NCBI GenBank assembly: GCA_009829735.1
Contig: CM020619.1
Span: 13,197,777-13,261,776, forward strand
From: Pyropia yezoensis
Taxonomy: Eukaryota > Rhodophyta > Bangiophyceae > Bangiales > Bangiaceae
Length of the DNA stretch: 64,000 bases
Direction: 5' to 3'
How positions within the stretch are numbered: position 1 is the stretch's first letter; every line of letters begins with the position of its first letter. The notes below the pieces were generated by a model. That model saw only the letters and a list, made by a program, of their open reading frames with translations. It was not told where the DNA came from and searched no databases. Positions 2,640 to 64,000 of this stretch are shown one piece after another. The position numbers and the translations under genes were made by a program.

Positions 2640-3109
2640 TGTGGCAGTATTGACCCCCAGGTAGGGGGGCAACACGTGCCATGCAAGGGGCGGCAGGCCA
2701 CTAGCCTGATCCGTTCCTCCCCCTGCATTTGGGTCCATATTCCCTAAGTTTGGGATACTTAGCTTAGTAGTAAATCCAACTTGGATTTGAGGGTTTTCTG
2801 CATTTATCGTCTTGAATTTTCGTGTGGCCCGGTGGGCAGGTGCTGGGGTGGGAGATTCTGAGTGGCGAGATTCTGAGTGGACCCTGGGGGGATAAGGGGA
2901 GGGACAGCGGGGCTTGGCCCTGCGTCCCCGTCCCGACCAAGAAACTGTTGGACCACACACCATCCTCTTGTTTGTCCGTGGGGGGTTTGCCCCACAACAG
3001 GGACAGAGTGTGTGCGACTTGCACTTCTTCCGGTTCCCCCGACACGGGAGGCAGCCCTAGCACACCGCCCCAACTTGGGTGCCGTGTGTGCTAGTGGTTT
3101 TTTGCCACA
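2640..3109 (+). repeat. 3' LTR (470 bp)
   Basis: The segment starts directly after a purine tract (2627-2639) with TGTGGCA and ends with TGCCACA at 3103-3109. This is a perfect 7-bp inverted terminal pair with the canonical TG...CA ends. The base just after the end begins sequence that reads into the helicase frame. The target-site duplication should be the first 4-6 bases after 3109 (CCCGG...), but its partner is outside the window. Confidence 0.8.
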
Positions 3110-3183
3110 CCCGGAAAGATGCGCATGTTGTAGCGGACGCTGGCAGTAGTGGTGGCCAGGAGCTCGCCCACTTCAGCCGCGAG

Positions 3184-6100
3184 ATGGTCGCTGCTGTCGG
3201 CGCCGTCTGCTCGAAATGGCTGCGCGAGCACGGGCCGCTGGTCGATTCTCCTTCCTGGCCGGAACAAGTGCGGTTTTTCCGTACCGCCTGGTCCACGGCC
3301 GTCTGGCCACCCGAGGCCGAGCGCTTCCTGCTCGACGCATGTGCGACAGACACTGCCACCGTGCATCAGGCGGTGCTGGCGGGCAAGGGTGGTACTGGAG
3401 CGCCCCAGCAGCCGTTAAAACTGCACACCCGCCTGTGGTCGCATCTGGTCGAGTCGGTCTTCGTACCTGCCGTCGTGGAGCGGGGTGGCGGTGACGACGA
3501 GCCTGTCCCGGCCGGTGCGGGCAGCCCTGACGACGTTGCCCTGCTGATGTCCATGCCAGGGACGCTGGCAATGGTGCCGACGGACTTCTTCGATGCTTTT
3601 AAAGAAGTCAATGCGTGGAGAATGGCCATATGTGTCATGGCGGCTTTGCTCTTCCCAACCGTTCTGGGACACCCGGGCGCTGCTGCTGCTGCCGCCCCGG
3701 CTACGGCCCTGTTTTCACGTTTTGCGAGGGTCACTGCCTCGGACACTGGCGTCGGGTGGCTGGTGGCGCCCAGCTCAAAGTTCCGACTGTCCGCCTGGGA
3801 CGTCATCCGTCGCCTAGCCGGTGTGGTGGGTGAGCGGGGGGGCGGACGGTCTGATTCGTGGTCCGTCATGGACCTGTTGGATGCGTGCTCTCCCGTCCTG
3901 CCCGACGGGGGGGGGCGCGGTGACTCCGCCTGCGAGACCACTAGCGCTGCCGCCCCGGGTCCGCCTTGTGGTGGTCCGCGACCATTTGACGCCCTGCACT
4001 TGCTGGGTGTTAGTGCGCGCACTGCTCGTGCGGCTCGTCACTGGAACGGCATCCCCCTGCAGCTGTTTGCCGTAAGAACGGCGTTTGTGCGGGGCGGCCG
4101 ACAGGTGCTGACGGACGTGAGCGCGGGGCCCCCGGCTGCGGCTGTGGGCTCTCAAGGCGATTCGGACAAAATGTCAGAGGGTGGGGCGCTCGCCCGTGTC
4201 CTGCACCTGCTCATGCGGCTGGGCATCCACCGAGACGTGTCGGAAGCACGGAGTGTCATCCTCTACGCGCTCGTCGGGTGCCTTGCCCGATTCGCCGATC
4301 CCACTGGGTGCTCCACCCATTTTGACATCTTGGACGCGGGACACATCGCCCCCGTTGTCAACGAGTGGGTTGACTCGCTGCCGAGCCTTTGGCAGGTTGC
4401 CGTCGGAAACGACAAGGCGGCGCGGACGCGATACAGCTGGGTGTACTATGCGGCCATTTACAACCTGGGGAGTATGCCGCTTGCGTCTGGTGTGCGGGCA
4501 TCTCGGAGGGCGCTGGCCAACGCAGCAATCGCCTGGTTGGTGTCCCCCTCGGGTATGTCGCCCTGGATCGGACGAGATTGCGAGAATACCTCTCAGGCCC
4601 TGCACAAGCTGAGGAGTTTGCTCTGTCCGCCTGCCAAGCCTGGCAAGCGGATCAGCCCCCTGGTCGAGCAACTTCGTCAGCGCATCGACGAATTACTCGG
4701 CGGGTCTGCTGCGCCAGACGACACTAGGGCGGGTGCTGCGCCAGACGACGCTGGGGCGGGGGCTGCGCCTGCCGATGAGGTAGGTGCCGGGTCAGGTGCC
4801 GACAAAGATGGGCGGCCTCCCCCAGCGCCCGATGCGACCATGGCGATTCCGTCCGGTGACGGTGACCCCGACGGCATTACCATTGGCGACGACGCGGGGG
4901 GCGAAGTCGAGTTTGTGTGCAACCTACCCGCAGTGGCGGTCCCAGACAATGTGTTGGCTGCGCAGGCAGTTTCCCCTGTCTACAATGCGGAACCCTGCAA
5001 CGTCATTGTGTTCATTGACGACGACTATGACTGGAATGACGCAGAGAACGATGACGTGACTGTCGTCAGTGTGGCCCGGGTGGTCCGGGCCGGCCAACTG
5101 GTCGGGCAGCGGCGGACGCCCTCCGCCACTGGGGCGGCCGCCTATGTGGCAGTAGCTCAGAGTGCCGCCACCTCTGTCGCGACGGTAGCTGCCACCTCCT
5201 CCGCGACGGCAGCCGTCCCAGGCGGGCCCTCTACGCCCGAGGTTGCTGTTACCGCTGCTGCTCCCGATGCTCCATCGGCGGCGGGTATAGCCACAGGCGC
5301 GGTGGATGCTGTGGCTGTGGGTGCTCCTGGCGTTGGTGCGGCTCCTGCGGGCACGGCGGCCGTGGCCGACGCGGGTGTTGGCGGTGGTGCACCTGCTGAA
5401 CCTGGTACTGCTGCAGCAACTGACACGGCGGGTGTGGCTGCGGTGGGCACGGCAGTGGCTCGGGGGGAGGAGCCCTCTCCCGCTTTGCCTGCAGTTGCAG
5501 ACGCGGAAGCGGCTGTTGTTGGAGGTGGGACTGCCGGCGTGGGAGGTCCTTGTATCGGTTCCCCGGGTGGTGGGGGGGACGCGTCTCCCACTGCAGCACC
5601 TCTGCCCGCGGCGGCGGCGGCGGCGGCGGGGGGTGATGCCAGCCGGGCCAGTCCTCCCACACTGTGTGGCGCGGATGGTGATCGGGTGGCGCTCGGTCAG
5701 CTGACGCTCTGTACGTCAGAGTCTGGGTGGACGGATGTCCCAACCCACCTGCGCCCGTCCCTGCTGTACGCAAGAGGACCTGGGGGCCGCTGGCAGGCCA
5801 TCGTTGTCGCCACCGTGTGTCAGCTAGCCGCCCGCGGTACTGATGAGGTGGAGCAGTCTACCGAAGGGAGCAACAAGGGCCATGGCGGCGGCGGCGGACG
5901 CAGTGGGCGCGTGACCACGTCGTCATTGTGCTCCCGCTTTGGCGTGGCTCGCATCGACGCGCCCATAACCCTGTCGTCGCCGCAGGTGGGGGGCTCCATC
6001 TTGGACGACCCACGGGCGTGTCGCATGTGCAGCGTGCTCGTGCGTATGCCCGCCCCCCGGGGTGGTCCCCCCGGTGGCGGCCGCCACCACCGCCGCCACA

Positions 6101-8317
6101 AGGACCGCGGGGGAGAGTGTCAAGTGGACCCCATAGACGCCACCCCGGGTGATTTGTGTGCCTTCTGGGTACCGGAACCCGTCGGCTCGGTGTGCAGCAC
6201 CCCCGTGGACGCCGTGTTTATTGGCCGCTGCGAGGACAAGGAGGGGCAACCCGGCGTGGGGGTTGGTGGCCCACCGCCCGCGGGGGCAGGCCAGTGGTGG
6301 GTGGACAAGACGCCTGGCCCGGGGCTGGACGAGGGGGACGATGACGCCGGCACGGCGCGCCACGGTGGCGCATCCAGTCCCCCCCGGCGGTGGTGGTTTG
6401 CGGTGCGTCGTTCAGACGTGCTGCGGATGCTCCATCGCCGGACGGCAAATGTGGTCGTCACCCTGTCTCACAGTATCCTGTCGGACAGCCGCGAGTTTGG
6501 CGGCCTCGGCCACTGGGACCTTCTTCCGCCAGTCATGCAGAGGGCGCTCGCCATCCACGCAACGCCTCCACACGGGGGACAGCAGATGGTACCTGTACCG
6601 GCACCGGGGCCTCCCCCCCTGCAGAGTGCTCCTCCACGCTACGCCCACCTGGACGAGTTCCAGTGGCGCGCAGTCGATTGCATGCGCCAGGGGCTGTTGT
6701 CGGACGAGTGTGACGTGCAGCTGGTGACGGACCCCCCCGGGACGGGCAAGACACGCGCCATTGTCTCCATGGTGGACATGGTACTTGGGACCCTGCCAGA
6801 CGGGCGGGTCCTGCTGACGTCGCGCACCAACACGGCGTGCGACGAGCTGTTGGACGCAGTGCACGAGTTGTTCTGTCCGTCGGGGGCTGCCAGTCGACAC
6901 GGCGTCGCGAAACCCGATGCCGTGACGCTCCTCCGTGTGGTGAACCCCCTCCGGATGGCCACCGTGCCAAGACAACGCACATTGACGCCGTGGTGGACGA
7001 GCGCCTTCTTGTCGCCTACCCGTCCGTGACAGCCGCGGTGGAACGGGCGAGGGCACGGGTGGCCGATGTGGGCCGCCGTGTGGATCGTTCCCGCGCCCAG
7101 GGTGCAGAGCCGGGCGCGAGTGGGTCACAAGTCCTCCTCGAGGAATGTGCCGATGCGAAACAAGCCCTGGAGGCTGCCTTGCGTCGCCAGCAGCGTGCGG
7201 AACGGGAGCTCCGCAAGCGCATCGTGGGCGGCGCGTCCGTCATTGTCACAACCACGTCAACGTCGACGGGGGCGCTCGTGGGGGGTCACGGGTTTTTGAC
7301 GCCATCATCATTGACGAGGGTGCGGCAACAAGCGTCCCTGCGTCTGTCGCCGCCATTGTTCGCGCCAAGCGGGCGGGGCGTGCGGGTGGCTCGTCAGATG
7401 AAGAAGAGGATGGTCATCCGGCAGAGCGGACCAAGTGCATTGTCCTTAGTGGCGACAATGCCCAGCTGAGGCCGAGCGCCGGCATGGAGTACAGAGGCGA
7501 GACACGGCCGATGGCATCCAGCGTTTTTGAGCGGCTCGCCAGGTTTCTGTCCGCTTGCGTCATCCTCTCCGTGCAGTACCGCATGCGGCCGCTGTTATGG
7601 TCCCTCCTCCGACAAGTCTTTTACCGGCACATTGGCTTATGGTCGGACGGGCGCGGGCCCAAGGCCCGCCATGAGGAGGGGTTTGGAACACCCGCGTGGC
7701 TAAACCATCCGGGACAGCCTGTTCGCTTTGGAGGGCTGCAAGTGACAGACACCTCCCGCCTGCCGGCCGACGATCGGGCGCACAAGACGGGTTCCACCAC
7801 CCCCAACAACAAGAGCCTGATTAACGTTGCAGAGCTTCGGTTGGTCGAGATGGCTCTTACGGATCTACTGCGGGCGTGGGCGACGTCCAGCGGGGCTACC
7901 GAGCTCAAGGTGATGCTCATCACCCCGTACACTGCGCAGCGGAACAAGCTGAATGAGGTGGTGCAGTCGATGAGAGACAGCAGGCGGCTGCCCCGCAGAC
8001 CATGTGCCGACGTCAGGGTGTCCACCGTGGATGGCTGCCAAGGCGCTTCTGTGGACTGTGTCATACTTTCCCTCGTGCGGTCAGAGCCTGGGGCGCCACC
8101 CGGCGGGAGCACCGACTTTTTGTCCGACGAGCGGCGCGTGAACGTCATGATGTCGCGGGCACAGAGCCATCTCCACGTGATTGGTGACATGGACTACCTT
8201 TCAAGCTCTGGGGGTGTGTGGAAGAGCTGGTGGGACGACGTCCGCCGTAGGTGGAGCCGTCCAGATCGACGGGACCGCGAGCACATCAACATTGTGGCTC
8301 CCGACAGGGTGTACTAG
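3184..8317 (+). CDS. UPF1/Sen1-like SF1B RNA/DNA helicase, reading frame broken twice
   Basis: A large superfamily 1B helicase, expected to unwind RNA or RNA-DNA hybrids using ATP. Motifs in order: Q-like DEFQWRAVDC, Walker A DPPGTGKT (about 6728-6751), Ia TSRTNTACDELL, II IIIDEGA (about 7300), III LSGDNAQLRPS, IV VQYRMRP, V VDGCQGASVD, and VI NVMMSRAQSH near the C-terminus. The N-terminal 1100 residues hold a helical part (to about residue 530) and long Ala/Gly/Pro linkers. The helicase core is spread over three frames. Switches fall near 6950-6985 and 7270-7300, and both look like one-base losses; the second lies in a short G run. No convincing GT-AG intron explains them. The start is uncertain: ATG 3184 is the first in-frame one after the LTR, but coding-like sequence begins right at the LTR edge (3110), so the retrotransposon may have cut off the true 5' end. 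Confidence 0.75.
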
Positions 8318-8505: not shown

Positions 8506-9172
8506 ATGGCAAGGTCGCGCCCAAGTGCCACAGCACCGTCCGTGTATGTGAGCCCACAGCTCAGCGCCCAGGACTCCGCCGTGGTCGGCAGGCTCGATGG
8601 CGGGCTCATCGCGTCGCTCGCTCTCTGTCCGACGGTGAGCGCGCGGGGTCATCACTGGCCTCCTCCAACAGAAGAGGTCCTTCTGGGCCATCGGTACGGA
8701 TTTGGGGCGCTCCAAGAGCACCATCGCCTACGCAGCTATGGGCCATCCGCACGGAGTCCGCCCGCGCCAGGGTGGACAAGCGGGGTCGCCCCAAGGTTTT
8801 GACGGACCGTGAGCTCTGCAACGTCAAGCGGGCGCTTGACACCGACGGGTTTTCCTCTGTGGCATCCCTGAAGGAGATGGTGAATACCACGCGCACCCAA
8901 GCGACCAGCGGGCCCGAGAAGGGACCAGTGTCAGTCTCCGCTGTCCGCAGGGCCGTCTGGAGCTTGGGTTTTCACTCCAGGGGGAAGCGGCCAAGAAACC
9001 CTTCCTGTCTGCCAAGAACGTCGCCAAGCGCCTTGTGTGGGCCACAGCGCACCGCGGCTGGATGGCTCTGCGCGACGGGTGGGACCCCATTCCTGCTTTG
9101 TTTTTCAAGTCTCTCGTGGAGTCGATGCCCTGTCGTGTGGGGGGTGTGATAGCCGCTGCGCAGCGGATCTAA
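8506..9172 (+). pseudogene. decayed Tc1/mariner transposase, catalytic core deleted
   Basis: Pieces of a Tc1-type transposase in order but in several frames. ATG 8506 opens an N-terminal arm. A first helix-turn-helix is visible around 8690-8750 (LGRSKSTIAY). A second helix-turn-helix with its GRPK basic hinge is at about 8780-8980 (RGRPKVLTDRE, then VSVSAVRRAV and LGFHSR). Next comes the Tc1 linker KKPFLSAKNVAKRL at about 8990-9045. It then jumps directly to the typical C-terminus (KSLVESMPCR, then GVIAA) with a stop at 9170-9172. The roughly 150-residue DDE/D catalytic core between linker and C-terminus is missing, so no active enzyme can be made. At least two frame changes are present. Confidence 0.75.
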
Positions 9173-10538
9173 AACCGTGTATCTTATTTTCCGTGCATCG
9201 GGCCCAAACAGGCGGGCAGTGGATTGCAGGGGGGCGCCCAGGGGCCCCGTAAAGCCCGATTTCCGCGTGCAAGAGCGCACACGGCCGCGTTGTGACCGTG
9301 CTTCCTACTCTTTTTTTTTTTTTTTTTTTCTCCTCGACGACCGTCATCAGGACCGCAGGGCCTACATTCCCACGGCCTGTGTGCGTCTCGCCAGAGGGGC
9401 GTGCCGCGGGGCGCACAACAAGGCGACCGTGACCCGAGAGTACGTGTCTATGCAGCAATATCCACGTTTCATGGCGTGCCCGAATGGTGTCAGTCGCTGG
9501 TGCTGCACTGCTGCACTGCTGTGCAGGCTTTCTCACGTGACCGCGCAATGCAATGCGTTTGTGAGTGTTGCTGCAGGCACACGGTGTTTTGCGCGACCAG
9601 GGCCGCACTTCAAATTGTGCATGCCCTGCAGCGTTTTATGGTGCTTTTCCAAAAAATGGCCACATCGGTGTGGAATGCAACCTTTGACGGGACCTCGACA
9701 CCGCCCCTGGATGGTCTTCCAGGCGTGTCACACGTCCGCCAGACTTTCGGGGAGCTCGATTGTGTTGGTAAGTAGTGCTGGTTGTGGGGGTCACGTGCTC
9801 GGCGATGGCCAGTTTGCGGGCTTCCGGGGACCACTACGCAAACCGTGTCACAGGTTGCCGTGGGTTGCTGTGGACCGGTGAAATGGGCGAGGTGGTTCCA
9901 GTCTGGTGTGCTAATGCGGGCCTCGGGTTGTTAACTATGTGGCCTCACGACCCCCTCAGGCCTTCATGGTTATTGGCCGTTTGAATCTCAGAGGCGGACC
10001 CAAGTCGTTCCGTGAAACCAGGCCGGGTCTTCCAGTCCGGGTTGCGGCCTGCGAGTGCTGGTTGCGGACGCTTCCGGCAACCTGCGAAAACGTGTCGAGC
10101 ATGCGATTGGTCAATGTAATCACGAGGCTTGTCTTGCAACGTGTGCTGATTTGATTGCTCAGCATGCGTGGGCAGATGGCCTAAATGACGTGCCCAACCG
10201 TCACATTCTCTGGAGGTACATGCATCTCAGCCTGTGGCCGGTGCGATCTGCGCGCTCCGTGCCCTACTATTGGCTGCACGTGATGTGGACCAGTCCCGCG
10301 ATCAAGTGGGCCAGATACTGTTGCTGTTTGCATCGAAGGTTGCGTTCCCACACCGAGGTGGCCATTTTTGGGAAAAGCACCATACATGATGCCAAGGCGT
10401 GCACCGCTGACAATGTGAAATTTTACGGCTTTGCAGAAGCGGAGACGCCCGGGCCCGCGGGGCCTGCAAACAGGCATTCGACAGTGCGCGCACGTGCCGG
10501 CACGGAAAATAAGATACACGGTTTAAGACCCGCTACGC
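9158..10538. repeat. imperfect long palindrome derived from a Tc1-like element end
   Basis: Outer arms 9158-9196 and 10500-10538 are inverted copies, 36 of 39 bases identical by eye. The left one overlaps the last codons and stop of the transposase remnant. Inner arms 9637-9684 and 10336-10384 are again inverted copies (core GGTGCTTTTCC...AAATGGCCAC). Between outer and inner arms the similarity is patchy, and the left side is longer, with a T run at 9309-9329. No coding frame is supported inside. It may be the long terminal repeats of a Tc1-like element, or two truncated 3' ends joined tail to tail. A small TA or TAA duplication at the outer edges is possible but ambiguous. Confidence 0.65.
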
Positions 10539-12104: not shown

Positions 12105-12114
12105 CATAAATAGG
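12105..12114 (+). promoter_or_regulatory. TATA-like box of the Fanzor gene
   Basis: CATAAATAGG stands out as an AT-rich island in a GC-rich stretch, about 155 bases upstream of ATG 12269. A transcript starting about 25-35 bases downstream would begin near 12135-12145. That makes 12269 the natural first start codon and excludes the longer open frame upstream. Confidence 0.5.
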
Positions 12115-12268: not shown

Positions 12269-15200
12269 ATGAACGATGATGACGACGGCAGCGACCAAGA
12301 CATTGGCGTCGACGGGCTGGACGGCGACACCACCTCAGACGAGGAGTGGGACCCGGCACAAGAGCAGGCGTACGTTCAGGACGCACGCAACGTGGTGACG
12401 CTCAAGCGGGCGGTGCTCGCCGCCAACCTGAGCCGCCTGCAGGGCGTGTCTGCACCCCACGGGGGCGACGCGGCCTCGTCGGCCGACTGGTCTGCCGCCG
12501 TCGCGCAGTTGCAGCAGGCGGCCAAGGATGAGGAGGCGGCGGGCCCCCTCGACGGCGCCGGCGAGGACCTCGTCGCGGCCATCACAGGCGCGGCAGAGGC
12601 GGTCAGCGTGTACTGTGGTGGTCGGGCGGCGCCAAGCGAGGCCGAGGTGGAGCTCGCCGCACGCGCCAAGACGGCCGCTGGGCTGATTGGCGTCGCCGCC
12701 GCGGGCTTGCCCCGGCGCGAGGCTGCCACTGACGCACCGCCCGCCCGCAAGGGGCGGACGCAAAAGTGTAGGGGATGTGGCGAGCCCGGGCACAAGGTCA
12801 CCTCTTGCAAGGCCCCGGCTGGTGCAGGGCCGGTGGCCGCTGCCGTCGCCGCTGCCGCTGCCGCCGCCGTCCCGGCGGCGGCGGCGGCGGCCGCTTCCAA
12901 GTGTCGCGACTGCCTGGGAGGGGGCCACAGCAGCGGGGACGCCGCCTGCCCGGTGCAGCGGCACTGTGGGGGCGTGTCAGCGGCCTACGACCGCGGTGTC
13001 AACCCCGACTGCAAGGACCCGCTTCAGAGCACTGGACGGCAGATGCGGGCGTGTACCGTGCCGGTGGGCGTCCTCGCGGGGGCGGTGTTTGGGGACGACA
13101 AGGACGACGCCGACACGCGCGCGGCGGTGGAGACGGCGCTGCAAGCAGAGCTGGAGGACCTCTCTGGGGCGGCTACCAAGCTCCGCTTCCTCATGCTCCG
13201 CGTCCTCGACGTGGCATTGCGCCGCCTGGTGTCGACCGTCGCGGACGCTGCCACCGACGACGCCGACTGGACGGGGGCCGTGCCCGCAAACTGGGCGCCC
13301 GTCTGGCTGTGGTTGGCCTACGCCTGCGGCTGCGAGGGTGTGTCTGGCAGTCCCCTGCAGGCGGGCACCGTGTGTGCGGGCTGTGGCAAGGGGCGGGCCA
13401 ACAAGCGGATGGCGCGCGCCCGCTCTGTGGTGACAACGAGCCACCCGCTGCTGGCAGAGGCGCTCTCGTACGCCCTGACGCAGGTGATGGCCGTGACGGC
13501 AGCTGCGTGCGACCGGTATCTTCCGGCGAGCAACAACACGGCACGATGGGAGCCCGTCGCCACCATCGTGGCCACCCACGCCGGGCGGTGTGTGGACGCG
13601 GCGTGTCGCAAGCTGGGCGCCAAGGCGGCCAAGGACGCGCTGGCCACCCCCCCCGCTGCCACGGCTGCTCCAGCGGGCGGCTCTGCCTGGGACACGGAGC
13701 GGCGGCTGACGCGGTGGGCGGCCGCGCGCTTCCGCGCGGGGACCGCGGACAAGGCAACGCCGAGCCGGCGGGGCCTCGACGGCGTCCCCCAGCACCTAGT
13801 CCAGGCGCTGGCGCAACGGGTGGCCGTCATGCGGGCGGCCATGCCACCCTCTGTGGCGGGCCTCTTTCCAGCAACGCCTGTGAAGAAGCGCCGCTGGTGG
13901 GCGTACGTGCCGTTTCTCCTCCACGTCCTGAATGTGGGTGTGGGGAGCCCGTACGCCCTCATCCCTGGCGCCCGAGCGGTGCTCCACGGTCACGGCACGC
14001 TGGTGCCGGACAAGATGCTCGCCCTGTTGCGGGCAGTTTCGGCCGCCACTGGCGTAGGGGTGCGTGGCCACCCCAGTCTTCGGGCATGGCCAGAGCTGCG
14101 AACCGGCGGTGCAGCGGTGCTGGCTGCCATGGCTGGTGTCGGTGGCCGCGCCAACCGGGCCGCCTCCCAGCTGTCTACCGACGGCGTGGCGGTAACGTTT
14201 TTTCTGTCTCGACCCGACACGGCCGCAGAGGCCGAGGCGCGGGCGGTGGCCTGGGCCAAGAAGCTGGACGGCGGTGGACGTGCGCGGGACCGCGGCGGCA
14301 AAGGCTTTGCGTCCCGGGCGGGGGTACTGACACAGCTCGAGCGGGCTGGCCTGCCGTTGGCGCGCGTCCGGTGGCTCCAGATGGTCGGTGGAGACCCGGG
14401 ACGGTCTGCCGTGCTGTCGGCAGCACCGGGTGAGCGCGTGGCGACGGCAGACCTCCCAGCCCGCCCCGCTGTAGCCGCGATGCGCGCCGCGTGGTCCCGC
14501 CACATGGGCTTGGACGCGCTCAACCGGGCGGCCGTGGCGCTCCTGCGTGGGGCGGGCGTCCAAGACGGGGTGGCGGCAGCCGCAACCGTGCCCGACGGCC
14601 ACCCACCGGCGGGGTCCAGGAAGCGGGCGGCGGCGGGCGCCCCGGCTGCAGGGGCGGGGACAGGGGGGAGCCGTTCCAAGCGACAAGCGCGGCGGTCGTC
14701 ACCCGAGGGCAGCGACGATGATGCGGCGGCGGTGGCCCCGGCGGAGGCGGGTGCGACGACGCCCCCCGAGGCAAAGACCTACCAGACGGCGAGCCCCGGC
14801 GGTGGCCACGGGCGCGTGCGGCGTGGGCCGCAGGCGTCCATCCGACGGGCCCGCCGCACCCAGCTCGCCACCTCGGTGCGGCGTGTGCTGCGTCGTACGC
14901 GCCTGTCCCGGTGGACTGTGCCCCGTCACGAGGCGGAAAAGGTGGCAAGGTGGCTGGTGGACCCCACTGCCGCGGCGGGCGACAGTGCCAGCGGCACCAC
15001 CCCAGACGCGCCGCTGCTGGACCGGGTGGACGCGCTGCCCCGGCGCAAGGGGTGTCGTCGACTGGCACCCGTCCCCGGCCTTCGCTACAGCCTGAGTGCC
15101 GCCCACTTTCGGGAGGCCAGCGGCGGTAACTTTTTGGCCCGTGCGTGGAAGCAGTGGCGGGCACGCAATGGTACTGGAGCGGGACCGGTGGCGGCGGCGG

Positions 15201-16513
15201 TGGCGGGACTTGTGGCGGCGGCGGGTGACGGAGGCGGCGTCGCTGGCCACCTACCACCCGTCGACCTGGCAGCAGCACACGGCACGATGCGTACCGGCGA
15301 CGACGGCAAGCACCTGCAGGCAACGCTCGAGTGGGCCGCCCGTCGGGACACGGTCGCGTACGGCCAGCGATTTGGCGCGCAAGCCACGCGACACCTGCGG
15401 GCGGCGCGTGTGCGCAAGGCCATCCAACGCGGCCGCTTTGCTGCCTCGGTGGCGCGGGACATGACCGGCGGCCTCCTTCGCCAGGTCCGTGGCGGCGGCG
15501 CGGTCGTCGTGGCCATGGGCACCGCGCGCGTGCGCGGGGGGGACGCCTGGCTCCGCCGCCACCTCCGACGGCTGTGCTGGTTTGTCGACCAGGACGAGTT
15601 CAACACGAGCAAGGCGTGTTCCGAGTGTCACGACAAGATGGTGCTCATCTACTCGACGGGCAACTCCCCCCCCAAGATTCCAAGAGAGCTGTATGGGCCG
15701 CCGGCCGGCCCTCTGCCGTCGACACGGCGTGTGCGGATGGCGGCTGGGTCGCGTCGGGGGCGGCCAAATCGGGCCCTCCCCTCTGCTACCCACGTGACGC
15801 GCCGAGGGCCAGACCCCGACGCCTACCGGGCGGCCGTCCGAGCCACTGCCCGTGCTGCTGCTGTGGCGCGGCGCGCGGCCGCGCTGGCCGCCTGTGCCGT
15901 CGAGGACCGCGCCGTCTATGTCTATGCCGACCAGGGGCGGCTGAGCGAGTGGGCGGCCAAGGGCTGCTACACGTGCTCTCTCGCGGCCCCACAAGGCCCC
16001 GGTCATCCAGCGCCACACCCGCCCGTCATTCGCAATCGGGACGACGTTGCGGCCCGCAACATGGCGTGGGTGGCCGCTCGTCGTCTAACGGGTACGGACG
16101 TGTGGCCTTTCAAGCGCCCGTTTGGTATGAGGTGGGCCTGGACGACCAAGCGTCCTCCAAGTGGTGTTCCCGTCCCGCCTGTACGTCGCACCCGTGCGAC
16201 TACGCGGGTCGATGTATGGCCCGTACTGGCTGCAGTGGACACTGTCGGCGACGGTGGTGGTGGTGGTGGTGGTGGTGGTGGCGGTGGCGGTGGTGGTGGC
16301 GGTGGCGGTGGCGGTGGCGGTGGCGGTGGCGGTGCCGGTGCCGGTAGGGGGGTTGTCGACGGCGACGCGACGGCGGCGTCCTGTACGACGCGACGCGGTG
16401 CTTCTGGTGGGGAACGGGTGGCGGCGGCCGGCAGTGCCATGGACGGGGTACGTCGGGCGGAGACGGGGGCGACAGACGCGCCCCGTGGTCTGGTGGACAC
16501 TGCAAGACGCTAA
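12269..16513 (+). CDS. Fanzor (eukaryotic TnpB-like RuvC nuclease) with N-terminal zinc knuckles
   Basis: One uninterrupted 1414-residue frame. The start at ATG 12269 is chosen because a TATA-like box lies at 12105 and the protein there begins with an acidic MNDDDDGSDQD segment. A CCHC zinc knuckle (CRGCGEPGHKVTSC) is at about residues 166-179, and a second, looser one (CRDC...H...C) at about 211-226. The C-terminal half carries the Fanzor signature: STDGVAVTFF, then a RuvC-I aspartate in GGDPG (D709), the RuvC-II glutamate in DQDEFNTSKACSECH (E1110), a zinc finger formed by C1117/C1120 with C1233/C1236, and RuvC-III in NRDDVAARN (D1258). All three catalytic acids are present, so it looks functional. 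Fanzors are RNA-guided DNA endonucleases carried by eukaryotic transposons and some large viruses. The last 110 residues hold a Gly run coded by a GGT/GGC microsatellite. Size is well above typical TnpB (about 400 aa), owing to N-terminal and linker insertions rich in Ala/Gly. Confidence 0.87.
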   Translation: MNDDDDGSDQDIGVDGLDGDTTSDEEWDPAQEQAYVQDARNVVTLKRAVLAANLSRLQGVSAPHGGDAASSADWSAAVAQLQQAAKDEEAAGPLDGAGEDLVAAITGAAEAVSVYCGGRAAPSEAEVELAARAKTAAGLIGVAAAGLPRREAATDAPPARKGRTQKCRGCGEPGHKVTSCKAPAGAGPVAAAVAAAAAAAVPAAAAAAASKCRDCLGGGHSSGDAACPVQRHCGGVSAAYDRGVNPDCKDPLQSTGRQMRACTVPVGVLAGAVFGDDKDDADTRAAVETALQAELEDLSGAATKLRFLMLRVLDVALRRLVSTVADAATDDADWTGAVPANWAPVWLWLAYACGCEGVSGSPLQAGTVCAGCGKGRANKRMARARSVVTTSHPLLAEALSYALTQVMAVTAAACDRYLPASNNTARWEPVATIVATHAGRCVDAACRKLGAKAAKDALATPPAATAAPAGGSAWDTERRLTRWAAARFRAGTADKATPSRRGLDGVPQHLVQALAQRVAVMRAAMPPSVAGLFPATPVKKRRWWAYVPFLLHVLNVGVGSPYALIPGARAVLHGHGTLVPDKMLALLRAVSAATGVGVRGHPSLRAWPELRTGGAAVLAAMAGVGGRANRAASQLSTDGVAVTFFLSRPDTAAEAEARAVAWAKKLDGGGRARDRGGKGFASRAGVLTQLERAGLPLARVRWLQMVGGDPGRSAVLSAAPGERVATADLPARPAVAAMRAAWSRHMGLDALNRAAVALLRGAGVQDGVAAAATVPDGHPPAGSRKRAAAGAPAAGAGTGGSRSKRQARRSSPEGSDDDAAAVAPAEAGATTPPEAKTYQTASPGGGHGRVRRGPQASIRRARRTQLATSVRRVLRRTRLSRWTVPRHEAEKVARWLVDPTAAAGDSASGTTPDAPLLDRVDALPRRKGCRRLAPVPGLRYSLSAAHFREASGGNFLARAWKQWRARNGTGAGPVAAAVAGLVAAAGDGGGVAGHLPPVDLAAAHGTMRTGDDGKHLQATLEWAARRDTVAYGQRFGAQATRHLRAARVRKAIQRGRFAASVARDMTGGLLRQVRGGGAVVVAMGTARVRGGDAWLRRHLRRLCWFVDQDEFNTSKACSECHDKMVLIYSTGNSPPKIPRELYGPPAGPLPSTRRVRMAAGSRRGRPNRALPSATHVTRRGPDPDAYRAAVRATARAAAVARRAAALAACAVEDRAVYVYADQGRLSEWAAKGCYTCSLAAPQGPGHPAPHPPVIRNRDDVAARNMAWVAARRLTGTDVWPFKRPFGMRWAWTTKRPPSGVPVPPVRRTRATTRVDVWPVLAAVDTVGDGGGGGGGGGGGGGGGGGGGGGGGGGGGAGAGRGVVDGDATAASCTTRRGASGGERVAAAGSAMDGVRRAETGATDAPRGLVDTARR

Positions 16514-17223
16514 GACAGCGCACATCTTGCCCGTGACCCGCACCTACCACGGGGTGCGTCAGCCGCCCCCTTTTTCGCCGACGAGCCAATTATGGGTAAT
16601 TGTCGGCCGTTCACTAGTAGGTTAGACGCCGGCTTTTCCCGGGGACCTTTCCCAGGATGAGTCGGATGTTTCCCGGAGGGGTTTAACCGATAGTTACTGT
16701 ACATTACCATACGTAACCTCGTCGGTGCACCCTTTGTTTCCCGCGCAAACTACCGAAACCCTTGTGCGGGTCTCTATCTGGGAAACCGCAACACGTGTGA
16801 CTTTCAGGTGGTCCTGCGCATCGCCTGCCCACAGGCCTCTCCTCGGCACCCCCCCCACCTCCCACTGCATGACTGGAGCTGATGGGGGGCATCTGCGTCG
16901 CCACAGCCACCCAAAGAGCCCCGCCCCCCCCTTGCGCCGTCGCCACGGCCTGGGCCGACCCCCTCTTTCGTGAACGCACGCTCCCTCCCCGTCTGCACAC
17001 CGCAAATGCGCGTCTCCTCCTTCCCATCTCGCAGAGCCGTGCATCCCCTCTCTTCCCCCACGCCATTTCCCTCCATCCCGCCCCCCCCCCCCCCCCCGCT
17101 CCAGGGACCCTCTTCCTTTCTCGAGCGACCGCTACGCATCCTTCTTTTCACCACCCCCCCCTCCCTCCCCGCCCCCCCCATCCCCTCTTCTTCCCCTCCT
17201 CACAGACCCCGCCCCGCCGCGCC
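16514..17223. other. 3' flank of the Fanzor gene, candidate guide-RNA/element-end region
   Basis: No gene seen. The first 200 bases are less GC-rich than the neighbours and contain CCCGGGG/CCCC-type short inverted segments around 16630-16685. TTTTTCGCCG at 16570-16579 also occurs at 10623-10632 on the left side. In TnpB and Fanzor loci the guide RNA is known to come from the non-coding 3' flank up to the element end, so this is where it would be expected. From 16830 the sequence becomes C/T-rich 5'-UTR-like sequence of the next gene. Confidence 0.35.
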
Positions 17224-43237: not shown

Positions 43238-44302
43238 GGCGCGGGTGGCGGATGCGCAACAATGGGCGGGCGGGGAGTGGCGGAAGGGGGGTGGCCACCG
43301 GCGCGATGGGGACAACCAAGACACTGGGCCGCCGCCGCTGCCGTCGAGCGCTGTTGCCGCCCTCTATCGCCGCCGCGACCGCCGGGGCACCTCCTCTGTC
43401 CAAGAACGGGAGGTCCAACGCAGGCGACCCTGTTGCGCCACCGACGAGTCTCTGCTCTGACGGTCACGCCCTCTTCCCATCCCGCAATGGGTCTCTTGAA
43501 GGAGGCGGCGGCGCAGCGGGCGGCAGGCGTGCGCGCACGCCGCAGCAGGGGATGCCCCTCGGCACAGGCAGCGCGAGCCACGCGGCAGGCCGCAGGGATG
43601 GGCTCGACCGAAGGCCTCCGACCGGGGTGTGCGCTGGACGCCCATGCCGTCCATCGCTGTGCCTGCATTCCTGTATGTATGTAGTCACCGCCCGTCATCA
43701 TCGTCATGGTGGGGCGCTCCGTGCCACAACCTAGTACGTATTGAAAGCCCTTTGGCATGAGATGCCCATGACCTCGCAAAGAGGAGGACATTGAACAGTC
43801 CTGCTGGATCGCTCCATTCGTGTCCGACACGGTGTGCTTCCTTAGGACGATCATCATCATCGTCCTCGTGGATGATCCGCGGGGGTGACGTGCCGTCTGG
43901 GCGGGACGTGCAGTACAGAACGGACTTACGTATACGCCGAGCCTGGTCGCCCCACGGCGTCCAGTTAAGGCGCCGTCACAGGAGAGGCATCCCAGCGAGG
44001 TCGTCTACGCGGTTGGAAACTCTCTCCTTTTCGTCACGTCCACCCTCACGGCGGAGGGGCGGTTTCTCTTCGCAATACAAATAGAGGGGCACCTGTGATC
44101 CCCAAGAACACGTGGCAAAAACCCTTAAACGGAAGGAAATCTATTTTACGGACGGCTTCAAGAACGCGACTGCCCGACGACCCTCGGGGGCATGCACGCC
44201 CCGCCCACCTACGAAAACCTACCGGGTGGTGAACCAACCCACCCAGCATGACTATCGCGCCCACCTTCGCGGGCGGGGGCGGCGGACGCCACCACACCCG
44301 CC
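43238..44302. other. intergenic, no gene seen
   Basis: This region includes the 5' flank of the M13 peptidase gene and ends at the left arm of the inverted duplication. GC content is lower at 43660-44160. Nothing supported on either strand. Confidence 0.45.
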
Positions 44303-45200
44303 CCCCCTCTCCGTCTACCCCCTCAGCCTGCCCTCTCGACAACGTGACGCCCCCCCCCCCGGCGGCCGCCCCCCGACAGGGCCGCGGTTCAGTAGTCGTA
44401 GGCGCGGCACTTGCCCCTGGAGCACCGCAGGGAGGTGTAGCACTTGGCCGCCGTCGCCCCCCCACACGGCGCGGCCGCCCCCACCCACCGGGCGCACCTG
44501 CCGTCGTCACAGGTGGCGTCGGCGTAGCACTGGGCGGCGGCGGCGGCGGCGGGCCCGCAGGGCTGGCCCGCCGGCACGTACGTGGCGCACGCGCCGCTGA
44601 CGCAGCTGGCGTTGGCGTAGCACCTGGTGGTGGCGGCGGCCGTGCCCCCCCCGGGCCACCACACGCCTCCCCCGCCGCCACGTACGCCACTCACACGCCA
44701 GCGTCGCAGCTGGCGTTGCGGTAGCACCGCACGCGGCCGCCGCAGGGCTTGCCGGCAGCCACGTACGCGGCGCCACAGGTGCCGTTGACGCACACCAGGT
44801 TGGCTGCCGAGCACGGCTCGACGCGGCTGCACGACGCGCCCAGGCCGCGGTAGTAGGAGGAGGAGGGCCGTGACACCGCGTCGGTGACGTTGGCGGCAGA
44901 CGCCGCGGCGGCCGAGGCGCACAGGCCGACGGCGGCGACGGCAACGGCGGTAGCTTTGGCAAAGCCCGTAATGCAAGTGTCAGTGTCTGCGCAGCAGAAG
45001 GGTGGAGACGGGGATGGGCGCGAAGCGCTGGCGGCGGTGCCGCCATGTAGGTGCGGGTGGGTGTGGGTGAGCTGGGGCTGGTGGGCTTGCGTGGGTGTGG
45101 GTGCGCTCAGGGTGGGTGATGGCGGCGGTTGTCGTGATTGGTAGCACCGCCGGGCAGGCTCCTTGTACGCTTGCCTCCATTGTCTGGGGTGGACGCGCGT
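44303..45200. repeat. left arm of a large inverted duplication
   Basis: This roughly 0.9 kb segment is an inverted copy of about 47408-48292. Similarity runs from the 3' flank of the Cys-rich gene (CCCTCTCCGTCTACCCC side) through the gene and its upstream region to a TTGTCTGGGGTGGACGCG stretch. The arms are separated by about 2.2 kb. Differences are scattered point changes and short repeat-length changes, so the duplication is relatively recent. Confidence 0.85.
44389..44969 (-). pseudogene. secreted Cys-rich repeat protein, copy 1 (start codon lost)
   Basis: Inverted paralogue of the gene at 47635-48209. The position matching the other copy's start codon reads ACG (44969-44967), and no other in-frame ATG is seen upstream, so this copy is either silent or uses a rare start. 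The signal-peptide part (GFAKATAVAVAAVGLC) and all Cys-rich units are kept. The 71-bp intron is at the same place (donor GTGAGT at 44694-44689, acceptor CAG ending at 44624). An Ala run in the third unit is longer by two residues than in the other copy. Confidence 0.65.
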
Positions 45201-46220
45201 CGGCGCTTAGCCACGGCGGCCACCCAAAGGCAAGCCCGTCGGCCACCCCGGGGGGGGGAGCGTCGCCAGCCAGACCGCCGCGTCCGCGTCGGCGGGTGGT
45301 GGCCACACCCCGCCAGCGGCACGCGGCGCCCGCTCCCGCGGGTCTGGCTCCCGCGCGACCCCGTGGCGTGACGCGGCGCGCACCCGCCTGGCCGCGCCCG
45401 ACGGACCAGGCACAGCCAGCCCCCCTGCGCAGCAGACGCCGTGGCGTGGACGGGGCATGCGCGCATGGGCAACACCCCCCCCCCCCCCCCCCCCCGACCG
45501 ACGGGGCGACGGCGGTGGGCGGCCTGGCCGCCGCGCCGGTCCCCGCCGTGGATAGTTTTTTTTTTTGCCAGCCGCCCGCGGTCGTCTGCGCGCACGCCCA
45601 CCCCTGCTGGCTGCCTGCCCCTGACGTGGCTGGCCAGCTCCCTCCGCCGCATGGGGCGGGGAGGGGGGGTGGGGGAGGGAGCGGACGCGCGCGCGCGAGG
45701 CGGTTGGATGATGCGGGGGGCGCTTGCGCTGGTGCGAGGGGGGGACGGCTGCTGGGCGCCCCGGCCGGCGCCGCGTCCCCAGGGCCGACGGGTGCACGCA
45801 GGGGGGGGGCCGACGGGGGGCGCCGCCGCCGCGCTGTCGCCCCCTCCCCCCCCCCCAGCAGCGCGGATGGCCGCCACGGCGGCTAGGGAAGCAGGGGCGG
45901 GCGGGCGGGCGGGCGGGCGGGCGCCCCGGCTGCCGCCGCCCGCCGCGGCTGGCGCTCCCCCATCTCCGCCACGCCCCCTGCCGCCACCGCCCCTGCCCGC
46001 CACCGCCGCTGCCGCCGCCGCTGCCCGCTGCCCGCTGCCGGCACCTGCCCCTCCTTCTGCGCCTCCCCAGTACCCACCGCCCCCGCCCCGGTGGGTGGGG
46101 GGGCTGCCCGCCCGCCCGCCAGCGACGGCCGACGACGGTGTGTGTAGCAGCCGCGGCTACACCGTCCCGCAGGGAGGGGGGCGGGGGGGGGGAGGCGCGG
46201 GGTGAACCGACGCGCGGGAT

Positions 46221-46379: not shown

Positions 46380-47407
46380 ACGCGCGGCCGCCGTCCACCC
46401 GCCGCCCGACGGCCGCCGTCGCGGACGGTGGGGAGGGGGGGGGGCGGGGGGGGGGGGGGGGGGGGGGGTGCGACCGCCGCCGCCGCCGCGGCGACGTTGT
46501 GGCCGGCCGGCCGGCCCGCCGGCGGCGCGTCTGCCCGGCGGCGCGCGCCGCCCGTCGGCAGCGGGCCACGCGTCCCGGCGGGGGCGCGTGCGCTGCCCCC
46601 CTCCCGCCCCCCCCCCCCCCCACCCGCGCGCGTCGTCGTCGCTGCGGCGGCCGGCTTCCCGCCGGGCACGCCGTCTGGGGAGCGGGGCGCCGCGCACCGC
46701 CGTGTGCCGCGCTGCCGCCCGCCGCCGTCGCCGCCACCGCCGCCGCCGCCGCCGCCGCCGTCGCCGCCGCTGCCGCCGCCGTCGGTTCCACGCCCGGTGG
46801 CGGTGGGTATGGTCTGGAGGGGACACGGAGCGGCTGGGGGCGAGCACCGGGCGAGCCGGGGGGGAGGTGGGGGGGGGGGGGGGGGGGGGGGGGGAAGGAA
46901 GGGGGCAGTTAAAAAAGTGGAAAGCGACGGCCCACTGGGGGTGAGGGGCAGCGCCGTACGCCTCGCCAGCGGGTCGCTTGCGGTGAGCCCGCACGGGGAG
47001 GGGAGCGGCGGGCGGTCGGCGCGCCCGGTGCCAAGACCGCCCGACGGCGCACAGCGGTGGCGGCGGGGGCGGCCCCCGCCGGGCGTCGTCACGGCCCGTG
47101 ACGACGGCTTCCCCCAGAGGCGAGCGAGTCGTCCGTCGGGGGCGGAAAAAAAAGGGAGGCGTGGGACATCCCCTGAGGTGGATGGGGGGGGGGGGGGGGG
47201 GGACAGTGGTGGGAGACGTGGGAGGGTGGGGCCTGTAGCAGAGGGCAACGTACGCCGCCCTCTGCCAAAAGGAGAGGCGACGCGATGCGTGGCCGACCTG
47301 CCTTGGGGCATGCTGCGGCTGTCCACGTGTAGGGCGCTGCCGGGCAGACACCCCACTCTGGCTGCCACCGTCGCTCGGCTGGTGGGCGCCGTCGGCTGGC
47401 CGCGCCA
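45201..47407. other. spacer between inverted gene copies, G-run rich
   Basis: 2.2 kb with extreme composition and no supported gene. G runs lie at 46221-46250 (30), 46446-46468 (23), 46869-46894 (26) and 47184-47202 (19), plus GGGC and CCG tandem repeats (45897-45922, 46346-46378). Very long open frames exist on the minus strand here, but they encode only Arg/Pro/Gly-rich low-complexity sequence. Confidence 0.6.
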
Positions 47408-48292
47408 CGCGTCCACCCCAGACAATGGAGGCAAGCGAACAAGAGGCCTCACCGCCGGCACTACCCACCACCACACCCGCCGCTTGACCCGCCACAAGCG
47501 GACCCACACCCACGCAAGCCCACCAGCCCCAGCTCACCCACACCCACCCGCACCTACATGGCGGCACCGCCGCCAGCGCTTCGCGCCCATCCCCGTCTCC
47601 TCCCTTCTGCTGCGCAGACACTGACGCATGCATCATGGGCTTTGCCAAAGCTACCGCCGTTGCCGTCGCCGCCGTTGGCCTGTGCGCCTCGGCCGCCGCG
47701 GCGTCTGCCGCCAACGTCACCGACGCGGTGTCACGGCCCTCCTCCTCCTACTACCGCGGCCTGGGCGCGTCGTGCAGCCGCGTCGAGCCGTGCTCGGCAG
47801 CCAACCTGGTGTGCGTCAACGGCACCTGTGGCGCCGCGTACGTGGCTGCCGGCAAGCCCTGCGGCGGCCGCGTGCGGTGCTACCGCAACGCCAGCTGCGA
47901 CGCTGGCGTGTGAGTGGCGTACGTGGCGGCGGGGGAGGCGTGTGGTGGCGGGGGGGGGGCACGGCCGCCGCCACCACCAGGTGCTACGCCAACGCCAGCT
48001 GCGTCAGCGGCGCGTGCGCCACGTACGTGCCGGCGGGCCAGCCCTGCGGGCCCGCCGCCGCCGCCCAGTGCTACGCCGACGCCACCTGTGACGACGGCAG
48101 GTGCGCCCGGTGGGTGGGGGCGGCCGCGCCGTGTGGGGGGGCAACGGCGGCCAAGTGCTACACCTCCCTGCGGTGCTCCAGGGGCAAGTGCCGCGCCTAC
48201 GACTACTGAACCGCGGCCCTGTCGGGGGGCGGCCGCCGGGGGGGGGGGCGTCACGTTGTCGAGAGGGCAGGCTGAGGGGGTAGACGGAGAGG
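47408..48292. repeat. right arm of a large inverted duplication
   Basis: Inverted partner of 44303-45200. It carries the intact copy of the Cys-rich gene with its upstream region. The upstream parts of both arms contain the same run of CCCACACC/CACCCACAC repeats. Confidence 0.85.
47635..48209 (+). CDS. secreted Cys-rich repeat protein, copy 2 (intact)
   Basis: ATG 47635 (MGFAKATAVAVAAVGLCASAA) gives a clear signal peptide ending near SAAAASA. The predicted mature protein is made of repeated units C-Y-x-N-A-S-C-x-x-G-x-C-x-x-Y-V-x-A-G-x-P-C-G: CVNGTCGAAYVAAGKPCGG, CYRNASCDAG, CYANASCVSGACATYVPAG, CYADATCDDGRCARWVGAA and CYTSLRCSRGKCRAYDY. The direct frame hits TGA at 47911-47913. A 71-bp GT-AG intron (47910-47980, donor GTGAGT, acceptor CCACCAG) restores a 167-residue protein and joins V-C-Y-A-N-A-S-C. 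The pattern is like Dickkopf-N/EB-type disulfide repeats. A role in the cell wall, adhesion or defence is possible but unknown. Confidence 0.6.
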
Positions 48293-49343
48293 GGGGGCTT
48301 GGGCAATGGCAGCTGTCGCCCCTGCTGGCAACACAGCGGCTTCGACGCTGCTGTGGCGGTGGCTGACGGCTGCTGGGTGTTGTCGGCGACCCCCGTCTTC
48401 GGAGGACGCGACGGTGTTGGGAGGTTGAGGCGAGCAGGACGAAGAAGGTGAGTAGGTTTCTTGGCGCCTTGATTGATGGCGCCGCAAGGGCCGTACTGTG
48501 CGCCAGAGAGTCCCCTCCTCTCTACCTCTGGAGGTTCATCCACCGGCAGGGTATAGTGGGAGCGGCGTTCACCCAGTGTGTCGCGGGTGCGGCAGAGGGC
48601 GGTGGCGGCAGAGCATTCGCCACAGGGCGGTCGCCTCGCCTGCTGCCGGCGTCAGGGGCGCGGACACCGTGGGGGTGCAGGCGGAGCGCGCAAAAGCGGC
48701 GCGTCCAACCGCCCCGACGTGGGTGGCGTAGGAAGGAAAGGGGGGGGGCAGCGAGCGAGAGTTTAGGCAGCAGTGTCACATGAAGAGAACAAGAAAGAAC
48801 CAACCATCATGGTTGATGATCAGACTCATGGTTCATGATGACCATGTCAAAAAATGTCCATCAATCTCTGGTGCACGGCGATTTGCGGTGAGATGTGATT
48901 ACATAGTGTGAGGTCCGCTGTCAGCCAGTGCGCTTGCACGTGCGCTTGAGGTCCGCCGGGTCTGGAGCAATGTACAGGCAGGTGCCCCGCCCGGGCGGCC
49001 GAGCTCCCCGCGGGGAGCTCCCGGCTCTGGCGTGGGACCCCGCGGCCGCTGGGGGCACCTCCACAGGGTAGACAAGGCACGTTCGCTGGCCCACACGGAC
49101 GCAGGCGTCCCGTCCGGTTCTGTCTGTCAGAACGTTTGTCGAGCCAGGGTGCAGCCTCCGCGCCCTTTTTTTTTACTTCATCCCCCTCCTGCTCTTCCTC
49201 TTGCAAGAGATCCCCAACGTTGGCCAGCTGGCGGCCGTTTGTCCCTCTGCCCCCTAGGCCTCATCTTACGCTCCGTCCCCCCCTGCCCTCCCCCCCCCCC
49301 CCCCCTCGCGACCCCAGCGCCATCCCCCCCCGACGCGCCCCAC
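48293..49343. other. intergenic; contains a perfect 20-bp palindrome
   Basis: No gene seen. At 49001-49020 lies a perfect palindrome with GAGCTC at both ends and a CCGCGG centre. At 48806-48846 there is an ATG/CAT-rich stretch with repeated CATGGTT and ATGATG words. The last 100 bases before the next gene are C/T-rich leader-like sequence. Confidence 0.5.
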
Positions 49344-63400: not shown

Positions 63401-63600
63401 TTATCTCTTTTGCATCTACGTCGTTGGATATGCAGCGCAATGTCGACTTTTATGACAGTATTAACACATGTACATGCGGTTGTGTCCACTGAAGAGCAAT
63501 GCCCCTCCCTGTGCGCCCATTGGCGGCGGTGCCCGCGTCAGCACCTCCTTCAAAAACTCCCAGGTCTAAACGCCCCCTCCCCGTCAGCAAGGGGTGAAGA
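57404..63600. other. long gene-free region of balanced composition
   Basis: About 6 kb without a frame, RNA gene or mobile-element end that I can support. At 57660-57960 there is an imperfectly duplicated stretch (ATCAA(G/A)ATGGA and ATTGGACAGT each twice, GGATAACC-type words three times), ending in a strong hairpin. AT content rises toward 61-63 kb. tRNA-like clover-leaf signals were looked for by eye and not found. Confidence 0.45.
57896..57943. repeat. near-perfect 19-bp-stem hairpin
   Basis: Arms GGATAACCAGGCA (57896-57908) and TGCCTGGTTATCC (57931-57943) pair perfectly. After one A/A mismatch, TCGGC / GCCGA pairs again, leaving a 10-base loop. It is the end of a tract with related words and may be a small foldback element. 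Confidence 0.7.
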
Positions 63601-64000
63601 CCCCGGTGCCGTCAATAAAACCATGACGCCGTCAAACCCCTTTTGGAGCCAAAATCCTATCCCGGTGCCGTCAGAACCCGGTGCCGTCGAAACGACGGTG
63701 GAATCAAAACCCCGGTGGCGTCAAAAAAAAAAAAAAAAAAAACTGGTAGCGTCAAAACTCCTGTTCCGTCAAATCCCCGGTCGTGTCAAAAGCTATTGGA
63801 GTCATAAACCCCAATGGCGTCAGAACGCCCCGCCAAAATGCGCCCTCCCCTTCAGCCAGGCGCCATAATGCCGGTGGGGTCAAAATGCCCCGGCGCTGTC
63901 AAACCTACGGTGCCGTCAAAACTACGGTGCCGTCAAAACCCCTGTGGCGTCAAAACCCCGGAAGCGTAGAATCCCTGGTGTCGTCAAAGCCCTTGTCGGG
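63601..64000. repeat. minisatellite, unit about 17 bp, running off the right edge
   Basis: Degenerate tandem units of the type CGGTGCCGTCAAAACCC (with GGCGTCAAAA and CCGGTG cores) fill the last 400 bases. The best-matching neighbours are at about 63900-63950. An A run (63724-63740) interrupts it. The units are unequal, so this is not a CRISPR array. Confidence 0.75.

What the first reader, a model, noticed from the sequence alone, without database searches (positions are those of the whole stretch)
12269..16513. Intact Fanzor-type RNA-guided nuclease candidate in an alga
A single 1414-residue frame carries STDGV, RuvC-I D709 (GGDPG), RuvC-II E1110 (DEFNTSKACSEC), a four-Cys zinc finger (C1117, C1120, C1233, C1236) and RuvC-III D1258 (NRDDVAARN). 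The order and wording are those of Fanzor/TnpB. All catalytic acids are kept and the frame is open despite the repeat-rich context, which argues for recent activity or selection.
Basis: partly seen in the sequence, partly recalled or inferred. Interest (0 to 1): 0.9.

Follow-up and report, generated by a model that had tools for sequence, protein, structure and literature searches.

The report
Oversized Fanzor-like nuclease in red alga
A red-alga chromosome carries one copy of a repeated gene whose protein looks like an unusually large version of Fanzor, the eukaryotic relative of CRISPR nucleases; whether it cuts DNA with an RNA guide is untested.

Summary
It is one copy of a dispersed family: 18 relatives were found, 11 of them Pyropia yezoensis gene models on three chromosome-size contigs. 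Motif order is that of Fanzor1: TDGV, DPG, E six residues before CxxC, RD...N. E1110 is the Fanzor 'alternative' glutamate. Comparison with a two-sequence Fanzor1 profile scores 42.9; 40 shuffles reach at most 18.0. The Pfam match (PF07282) is below cut-off, but a Fanzor1 control scores about the same. Against: no direct match to a solved Fanzor; the fourth zinc cysteine is not kept in the three divergent relatives that cover it; D-E and E-D spacings are over twice those of the Fanzor1s compared, so the published 2013 spacing motif is not met; the AlphaFold model failed (pLDDT 33.9). New: an imperfect hairpin of 93 predicted pairs spans the stop codon (16402-16657), where a guide RNA would be expected. 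Verdict: a Fanzor1-like mobile-element protein, an enlarged variant of a known kind. Activity and guide RNA are unproven.

The parts
12269..16513 (+). Fanzor1-like ORF, 1414 aa plus stop
   Evidence: Translation; relatives at 97, 61 and 36% identity
12764..12820 (+). Zinc-knuckle-like CxxCx4Hx4C (residues 166-184)
   Evidence: PF15288 at E 2.1, 8.7 bits against a cut-off of 22: weak; present in P0003, absent in P0004
14174..14188 (+). STDGV, Fanzor1 TDG motif before RuvC-I
   Evidence: Aligned with L092, L093; SpuFz1 and GtFz1 show TDG at the same place
14393..14401 (+). RuvC-I D709-P-G
   Evidence: D kept in 13 of 13 relatives that cover it, DPG in 9 of 13 (sequences)
15596..15628 (+). RuvC-II alternative glutamate E1110, TS, and first zinc pair C1117/C1120
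   Evidence: E kept in 6 of 7 relatives that cover it; PF07282 sub-threshold match at residues 1104-1122
15965..15976 (+). Second cysteine pair C1233/C1236
   Evidence: C1233 kept in 5 of 5 relatives that cover it, C1236 in 2 of 5
16034..16060 (+). RuvC-III NRDDVAARN with D1258
   Evidence: NRD kept in 3 of 4 relatives that cover it
16402..16657 (+). Long imperfect RNA hairpin across the stop codon; candidate guide-RNA scaffold or element 3' end
   Evidence: 93 predicted pairs span the stop codon; z -4.5 with 200 shuffles for 16380-16640; strongest of 67 windows. No covariation or expression data

Best explanation
The ORF is the protein gene of a multi-copy mobile element of bangialean red algae. 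The protein descends from Fanzor1: an N-terminal part, then a split RuvC nuclease (D709, E1110, D1258) with a zinc-binding TNB-like segment, enlarged by long insertions. By analogy with Fanzor1 it would bind a structured RNA made from the 3' end of its own gene (candidate: the 16402-16657 hairpin), use the sequence just beyond the element end as guide, and cut matching DNA, helping the element persist. Shown here: motif order, profile similarity to Fanzor1, a dispersed repeat family, RNA-folding potential at the 3' end. Inferred: mobility by transposition, guide binding, cleavage, role in persistence, identity of the guide RNA.
For: Fanzor fingerprint DPG plus E six residues before CxxC (rule from PMC10711439, passages). 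Profile score 42.9 over 107 columns to Fanzor1, 40 shuffles at most 18.0. RuvC-I half: 20.05, 60 shuffles at most 15.3. MAFFT lines up five motifs with L092 and L093. L092 matches SpuFz1 at 1.1e-22 and GtFz1 at 1.5e-8 and has the same weak PF07282 score. 11 gene models in P. yezoensis, 80-97% identical. 3' hairpin.
Against: No direct PDB match to a Fanzor. HH-suite probabilities only 50-68%, 17.9% for the uncondensed alignment and 2.7% for the RuvC-I half. Spacings far longer than in the Fanzor1s compared. Fourth Cys not kept in divergent relatives. Structure model uninformative. No element ends and no transposase domain among 23 frames scanned. Fanzor controls were selected by the E..TS..C..C pattern, so that motif is not independent.
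Confidence: 0.6

Rival explanations
1. A Fanzor1 descendant that no longer cuts DNA: a decayed or repurposed protein whose RuvC and zinc finger are drifting.
For: Catalytic motifs damaged in several relatives: DTG in P0016 and P0017, DAC in P0018, DPA in P0019, Lys for E in P0007, NPE in P0011. Fourth Cys not conserved; Gly tract of variable length.
Against: This copy, P0003 and P0004 keep all three acids at 36-61% identity, which drift alone would not favour.
Confidence: 0.25
2. A member of the Fanzor2 or alternative-Glu TnpB branch rather than Fanzor1.
For: Profile scores are level: 41.3 (Fanzor2-like) and 43.7 (TnpB) against 42.9 (Fanzor1).
Against: The Fanzor1 match spans 107 columns, the others 58 and 49. 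The TDG motif is in Fanzor1 and not seen in the Fanzor2-like alignment. The RuvC-II strand ends 26 residues before E1110, 35 in L092, about 50 in Fanzor2-like proteins.
Confidence: 0.09
3. An unrelated repeat-element protein with chance Fanzor-like motifs.
For: Zinc-knuckle-like cluster, no family above cut-off, low-complexity Ala/Gly/Arg-rich sequence.
Against: Signature in 0 of 20,000 shuffles and 1 of 600 window frames; profile scores far above shuffles; no reverse transcriptase, integrase or transposase domain in it.
Confidence: 0.06

Closest known systems
Fanzor1 (SpuFz1, PDB 8gkh; GtFz1, PDB 9cer; IMG/VR proteins L092 and L093)
   Same: Order of TDG, DP[GN], Gly-ended RuvC-II strand, alternative Glu, TSxxCxxC, RD
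   Different: 1414 aa against 600-700 for most Fz1 (PMC11423790, passages); D-E 401 against 158-172; E-D 148 against 50-65; N-terminal zinc-knuckle-like cluster; fourth Cys not conserved
PpFz1 with its RuvC insertion domain (PMC11423790, passages)
   Same: An insertion of about 100 aa in RuvC of a working Fanzor1, so insertions are tolerated
   Different: Here the D-E stretch is about 230-240 residues longer than in the Fanzor1s compared; no sequence comparison with PpFz1 was made
CMe-1A, Fanzor1 element of the red alga Cyanidioschyzon merolae (PMC3627910, passages)
   Same: Red alga, multi-copy Fanzor1 element (about 150 copies reported)
Fanzor2 and alternative-Glu TnpB
   Same: Alternative Glu; level profile score over the Glu-to-RD part
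   Different: No TDG motif seen; shorter; fewer columns matched

Membership tests
Fanzor | DPG at RuvC-I | tested here: met
   D709-P-G; aligned with DPG of L092 and L093
Fanzor | Glutamate six residues before first CxxC of the zinc finger | tested here: met
   E1110 FNTSKA C1117; rule from PMC10711439
Fanzor | Acid of RuvC-III in an RD motif followed by ...N | tested here: met
   NRDDVAARN; aligned
Fanzor | Four-Cys zinc finger | tested here: inconclusive
   Four Cys present in the window copy; fourth kept in 2 of 5 relatives that cover it; cysteine pairs 112 residues apart
Fanzor | Spacing D-X(125,275)-[TS][TS] (PMC3627910) | tested here: not met
   403 residues between D709 and T1113
Fanzor | PF07282 match above cut-off | tested here: not met
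   12.4-14.4 bits against 26.3; Fanzor1 control L092 14.1 bits
Fanzor1 | Profile similarity to Fanzor1 | tested here: met
   Score 42.9, 107 columns, probability 57%, above 40 of 40 shuffles; no direct PDB match
Fanzor1 | Carried by a transposable element | tested here: inconclusive
   Dispersed family; no terminal repeats or target duplication found
Fanzor | Three acids in one RNase H-like site | tested here: inconclusive
   AlphaFold2 mean pLDDT 33.9
Fanzor | omega-RNA from the 3' end and RNA-guided cleavage | not testable with these tools
   Only folding potential at 16402-16657

The most novel reading that the evidence does not exclude
Bangialean red algae host a separate lineage of giant Fanzors, twice the usual size, with N-terminal zinc knuckles, large RuvC and zinc-finger insertions, and a guide RNA built as a ~250-nt hairpin that overlaps the last codons of the gene, so that protein end and RNA scaffold evolve together.
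Probability: 0.3. Interest if true: 0.65.

Novelty: new variant of a known kind. Interest (0 to 1): 0.48.

Why it matters
If active, it would widen the known sequence range of Fanzors: the profile libraries used here miss it, and the protein searches made here did not link it to a known Fanzor. It would be a native RNA-guided nuclease candidate in a cultivated seaweed group and a case for asking what large RuvC insertions do. The 3' hairpin makes the guide-RNA question testable from small-RNA data.

Tried and rejected
Whole-genome copy search (genome search, own) did not complete, so copy number rests on annotated P. yezoensis gene models, most of them partial; I could not judge whether a truncation is real or a gene-model error. 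Terminal inverted repeats: only low-complexity or short (9-19 bp) matches. PDB sequence searches gave Gly-rich, cytochrome or designed-protein noise or nothing. A viral-contig scan for family members found none. No second copy lies in the window (tblastn). The AlphaFold2 model was unusable, so no fold search was run. Single-copy host domestication was rejected because the family is multi-copy. Literature: the 20 listed of 3,419 papers hold no Fanzor; one search found 3 papers with Fanzor and Rhodophyta (two searched for passages, PMC10820777 seen only in the listing); none of the 12 listed of 81 holds both Fanzor and Porphyra. The library is partial and lists are capped, so this is weak evidence of absence in print.

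Control Fanzors were found with DNA patterns that encode E..TSK.C..CG, DE..TSK.C..C or DE[FY][RS]TS..C..C, so that motif is shared by selection; TDG, DPG, the Gly-ended strand and RD...N were not in the patterns. L093 was taken as Fanzor1 from its motifs and 33% identity to L092, not from a PDB match.
Full report
OBSERVATION. Window 12269-16513 (+) translates to 1414 aa followed by a stop, with each motif at the stated residue. The frame is open from 12122 (1463 aa) and is the longest in the window. In this G+C-rich stretch (72-74%) length alone is weak evidence: 184 frames of at least 150 aa exist, and codon-position GC does not separate the ORF from one antisense frame tested. The motif set is beyond chance: the ordered signature is in 1 of 600 frames of 60 aa or more and in 0 of 20,000 residue shuffles.

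WHERE IT IS. The protein is 97% identical to Pyropia yezoensis I4F81_002529, so the window is inferred to be nuclear DNA of that species or a near relative. Neighbouring frames look like ordinary host genes: gamma-glutamyltranspeptidase, HEAT-repeat, PPR, eEF1A-like, RsmB/F-type methyltransferase, M13 peptidase and sulfotransferase, an AAA_11/AAA_12 helicase upstream, and rRNA-like sequence at the far end. No transposase domain was found among the 23 distinct frames scanned with Pfam; the other frames were not scanned. No second copy lies in the window.

A REPEAT FAMILY. Three searches (8000 candidates scored in each) found 18 relatives. Eleven are P. yezoensis gene models (P0002, P0005, P0006, P0008, P0009, P0010, P0012-P0015, P0019) on contigs of 43.6, 34.3 and 29.4 Mb, 80-97% identical in the multiple alignments. 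Seven come from short ENA or 'lgn' contigs without a named organism (P0003 at 61%, P0004 at 36%, P0007, P0011, P0016-P0018). D709 is kept in 13 of 13 relatives that cover it, DPG in 9 of 13; E1110 in 6 of 7 (Lys in P0007); NRD in 3 of 4 (NPE in P0011); read. So this is a dispersed family with intact and damaged members. Their DNA could not be fetched: the genome search did not complete.

WHAT KIND OF PROTEIN. PMC10711439 (passages) separates Fanzors from TnpBs by DPG at RuvC-I and a glutamate six residues before the first CxxC. Both are met. The best Pfam hint is PF07282 at residues 1104-1122, 12.4-14.4 bits against a cut-off of 26.3; 4 of 15 family members show it at E up to 10, best 0.0049. 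NCBIfam gave nothing and PHROGs nothing for P0001.

CALIBRATION WITH KNOWN FANZORS. DNA patterns for the E..TS..C..C region, run on IMG/VR, brought in Fanzor2-like and TnpB-like proteins and two full-length Fanzor1 proteins: L092:2507-4522 and L093:1836-3797. L092 matches SpuFz1 (E 1.1e-22) and GtFz1 (E 1.5e-8), yet scores only 14.1 bits on PF07282, so a sub-threshold score is what a Fanzor1 can give. Profile comparison of the condensed algal alignment A5 with Fanzor1 (two sequences) gives score 42.9 over 107 columns, from before the RuvC-II strand to just after RuvC-III; 40 column shuffles reach at most 18.0. Fanzor2-like and TnpB-like alignments give 41.3 and 43.7 over 58 and 49 columns, with shuffles up to 22.7 and 19.1. 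HH-suite probabilities are only 50-68%, and the uncondensed alignment A3 against the Fanzor2-like set gives 17.9%. The RuvC-I half alone aligns TDG and DPG but weakly (score 20.05, E 0.017, probability 2.7%; 60 shuffles at most 15.3). MAFFT lines up all five motifs with L092 and L093. BLASTP of P0001 against L092 aligns only the DE.NTSK.C..C stretch at E 0.017. Because control Fanzors were chosen by that motif, it is not independent evidence; the other four are.

DIFFERENCES. D709-E1110 is 401 residues (172 in L092 and 168 in L093; 158 in SpuFz1 from residue numbers in PMC11423790, passages). E1110-D1258 is 148 (61, 50 and 65). Most Fz1 proteins are 600-700 aa (same passages). The spacing rule D-X(125,275)-[TS][TS] of PMC3627910 (passages) is not met (403). 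Of five relatives that cover the second cysteine pair, all keep C1233 and two, both P. yezoensis, keep C1236. By the strict 2013 pattern it is therefore not a member; by the RuvC fingerprints and profile evidence it is a Fanzor1-like variant.

STRUCTURE. AlphaFold2 on residues 205-1310 with 15 sequences gave mean pLDDT 33.9 and pTM 0.24. It says nothing about the site. A second job with Fanzor1 rows was never accepted.

THE 3' END. A fold scan of 67 windows of 240 nt over 11-19 kb (25 shuffles each, + strand) has its strongest value at 16401-16640 (z -7.0); other strong values are at 17121 (-5.6), 17241 (-4.1) and 12801 (-4.0). In 120-nt windows 16461-16580 has z -7.2, the next being -4.1 at 16241. 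With 200 shuffles, 16380-16640 has z -4.5 and 16430-16560 has z -2.4; 16514-16820 has z -3.5 with 100 shuffles. The larger values from few shuffles are rough. In 16400-16660, 93 predicted pairs span the stop codon (16402 to 16657); in fixed 261-nt windows this site has 88 such pairs, against at most 76 in 106 windows. The upstream arm codes the C-terminal peptide ending APRGLVDTARR, identical in P0009 and with one change each in P0003 and P0011; P0004 and P0007 do not have it. Fanzor and TnpB guide RNAs come from this end of their elements (established knowledge), so it is the first candidate. Covariation could not be tested.

MECHANISM. Most likely a Fanzor1-like, RNA-guided nuclease of a mobile element. 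Profile similarity, repeat status and RNA-folding potential are shown; transposition, guide binding, cutting and the role in element persistence are inferred.

Noticed in passing
58050-59600 and 62527-64000 (-): Three pieces of large-subunit rRNA (168-266 bits) and a low-scoring small-subunit rRNA match (64 bits) cut by the window end; possibly divergent, interrupted or decayed rDNA.
   Followed up: no
44300-45224 and 47381-48298: A 926-column inverted duplication at 95% identity inside the window.
   Followed up: no
9158-10538: Inverted repeats 9158-9196/10500-10538 (92%) and 9637-9687/10333-10384 (90%) frame a stretch of about 1.4 kb upstream; it looks like a small terminal-repeat element.
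   Followed up: no
3061-8317 (+): AAA_11 and AAA_12 helicase halves lie in two overlapping frames; an intron or frameshift is likely.
   Followed up: no
16252-16345: Six-base tandem repeat (15.7 copies) coding a long Gly tract; the tract is about 10 Gly in P. yezoensis P0009, so its length varies between copies.
   Followed up: partly
12105-12112: TATA-like CATAAATA about 160 bp before the ATG, then a pyrimidine-rich leader (seen by eye).
   Followed up: no
16620-16770: TTTCCC-type words recur four times downstream of the ORF (seen by eye).
   Followed up: no
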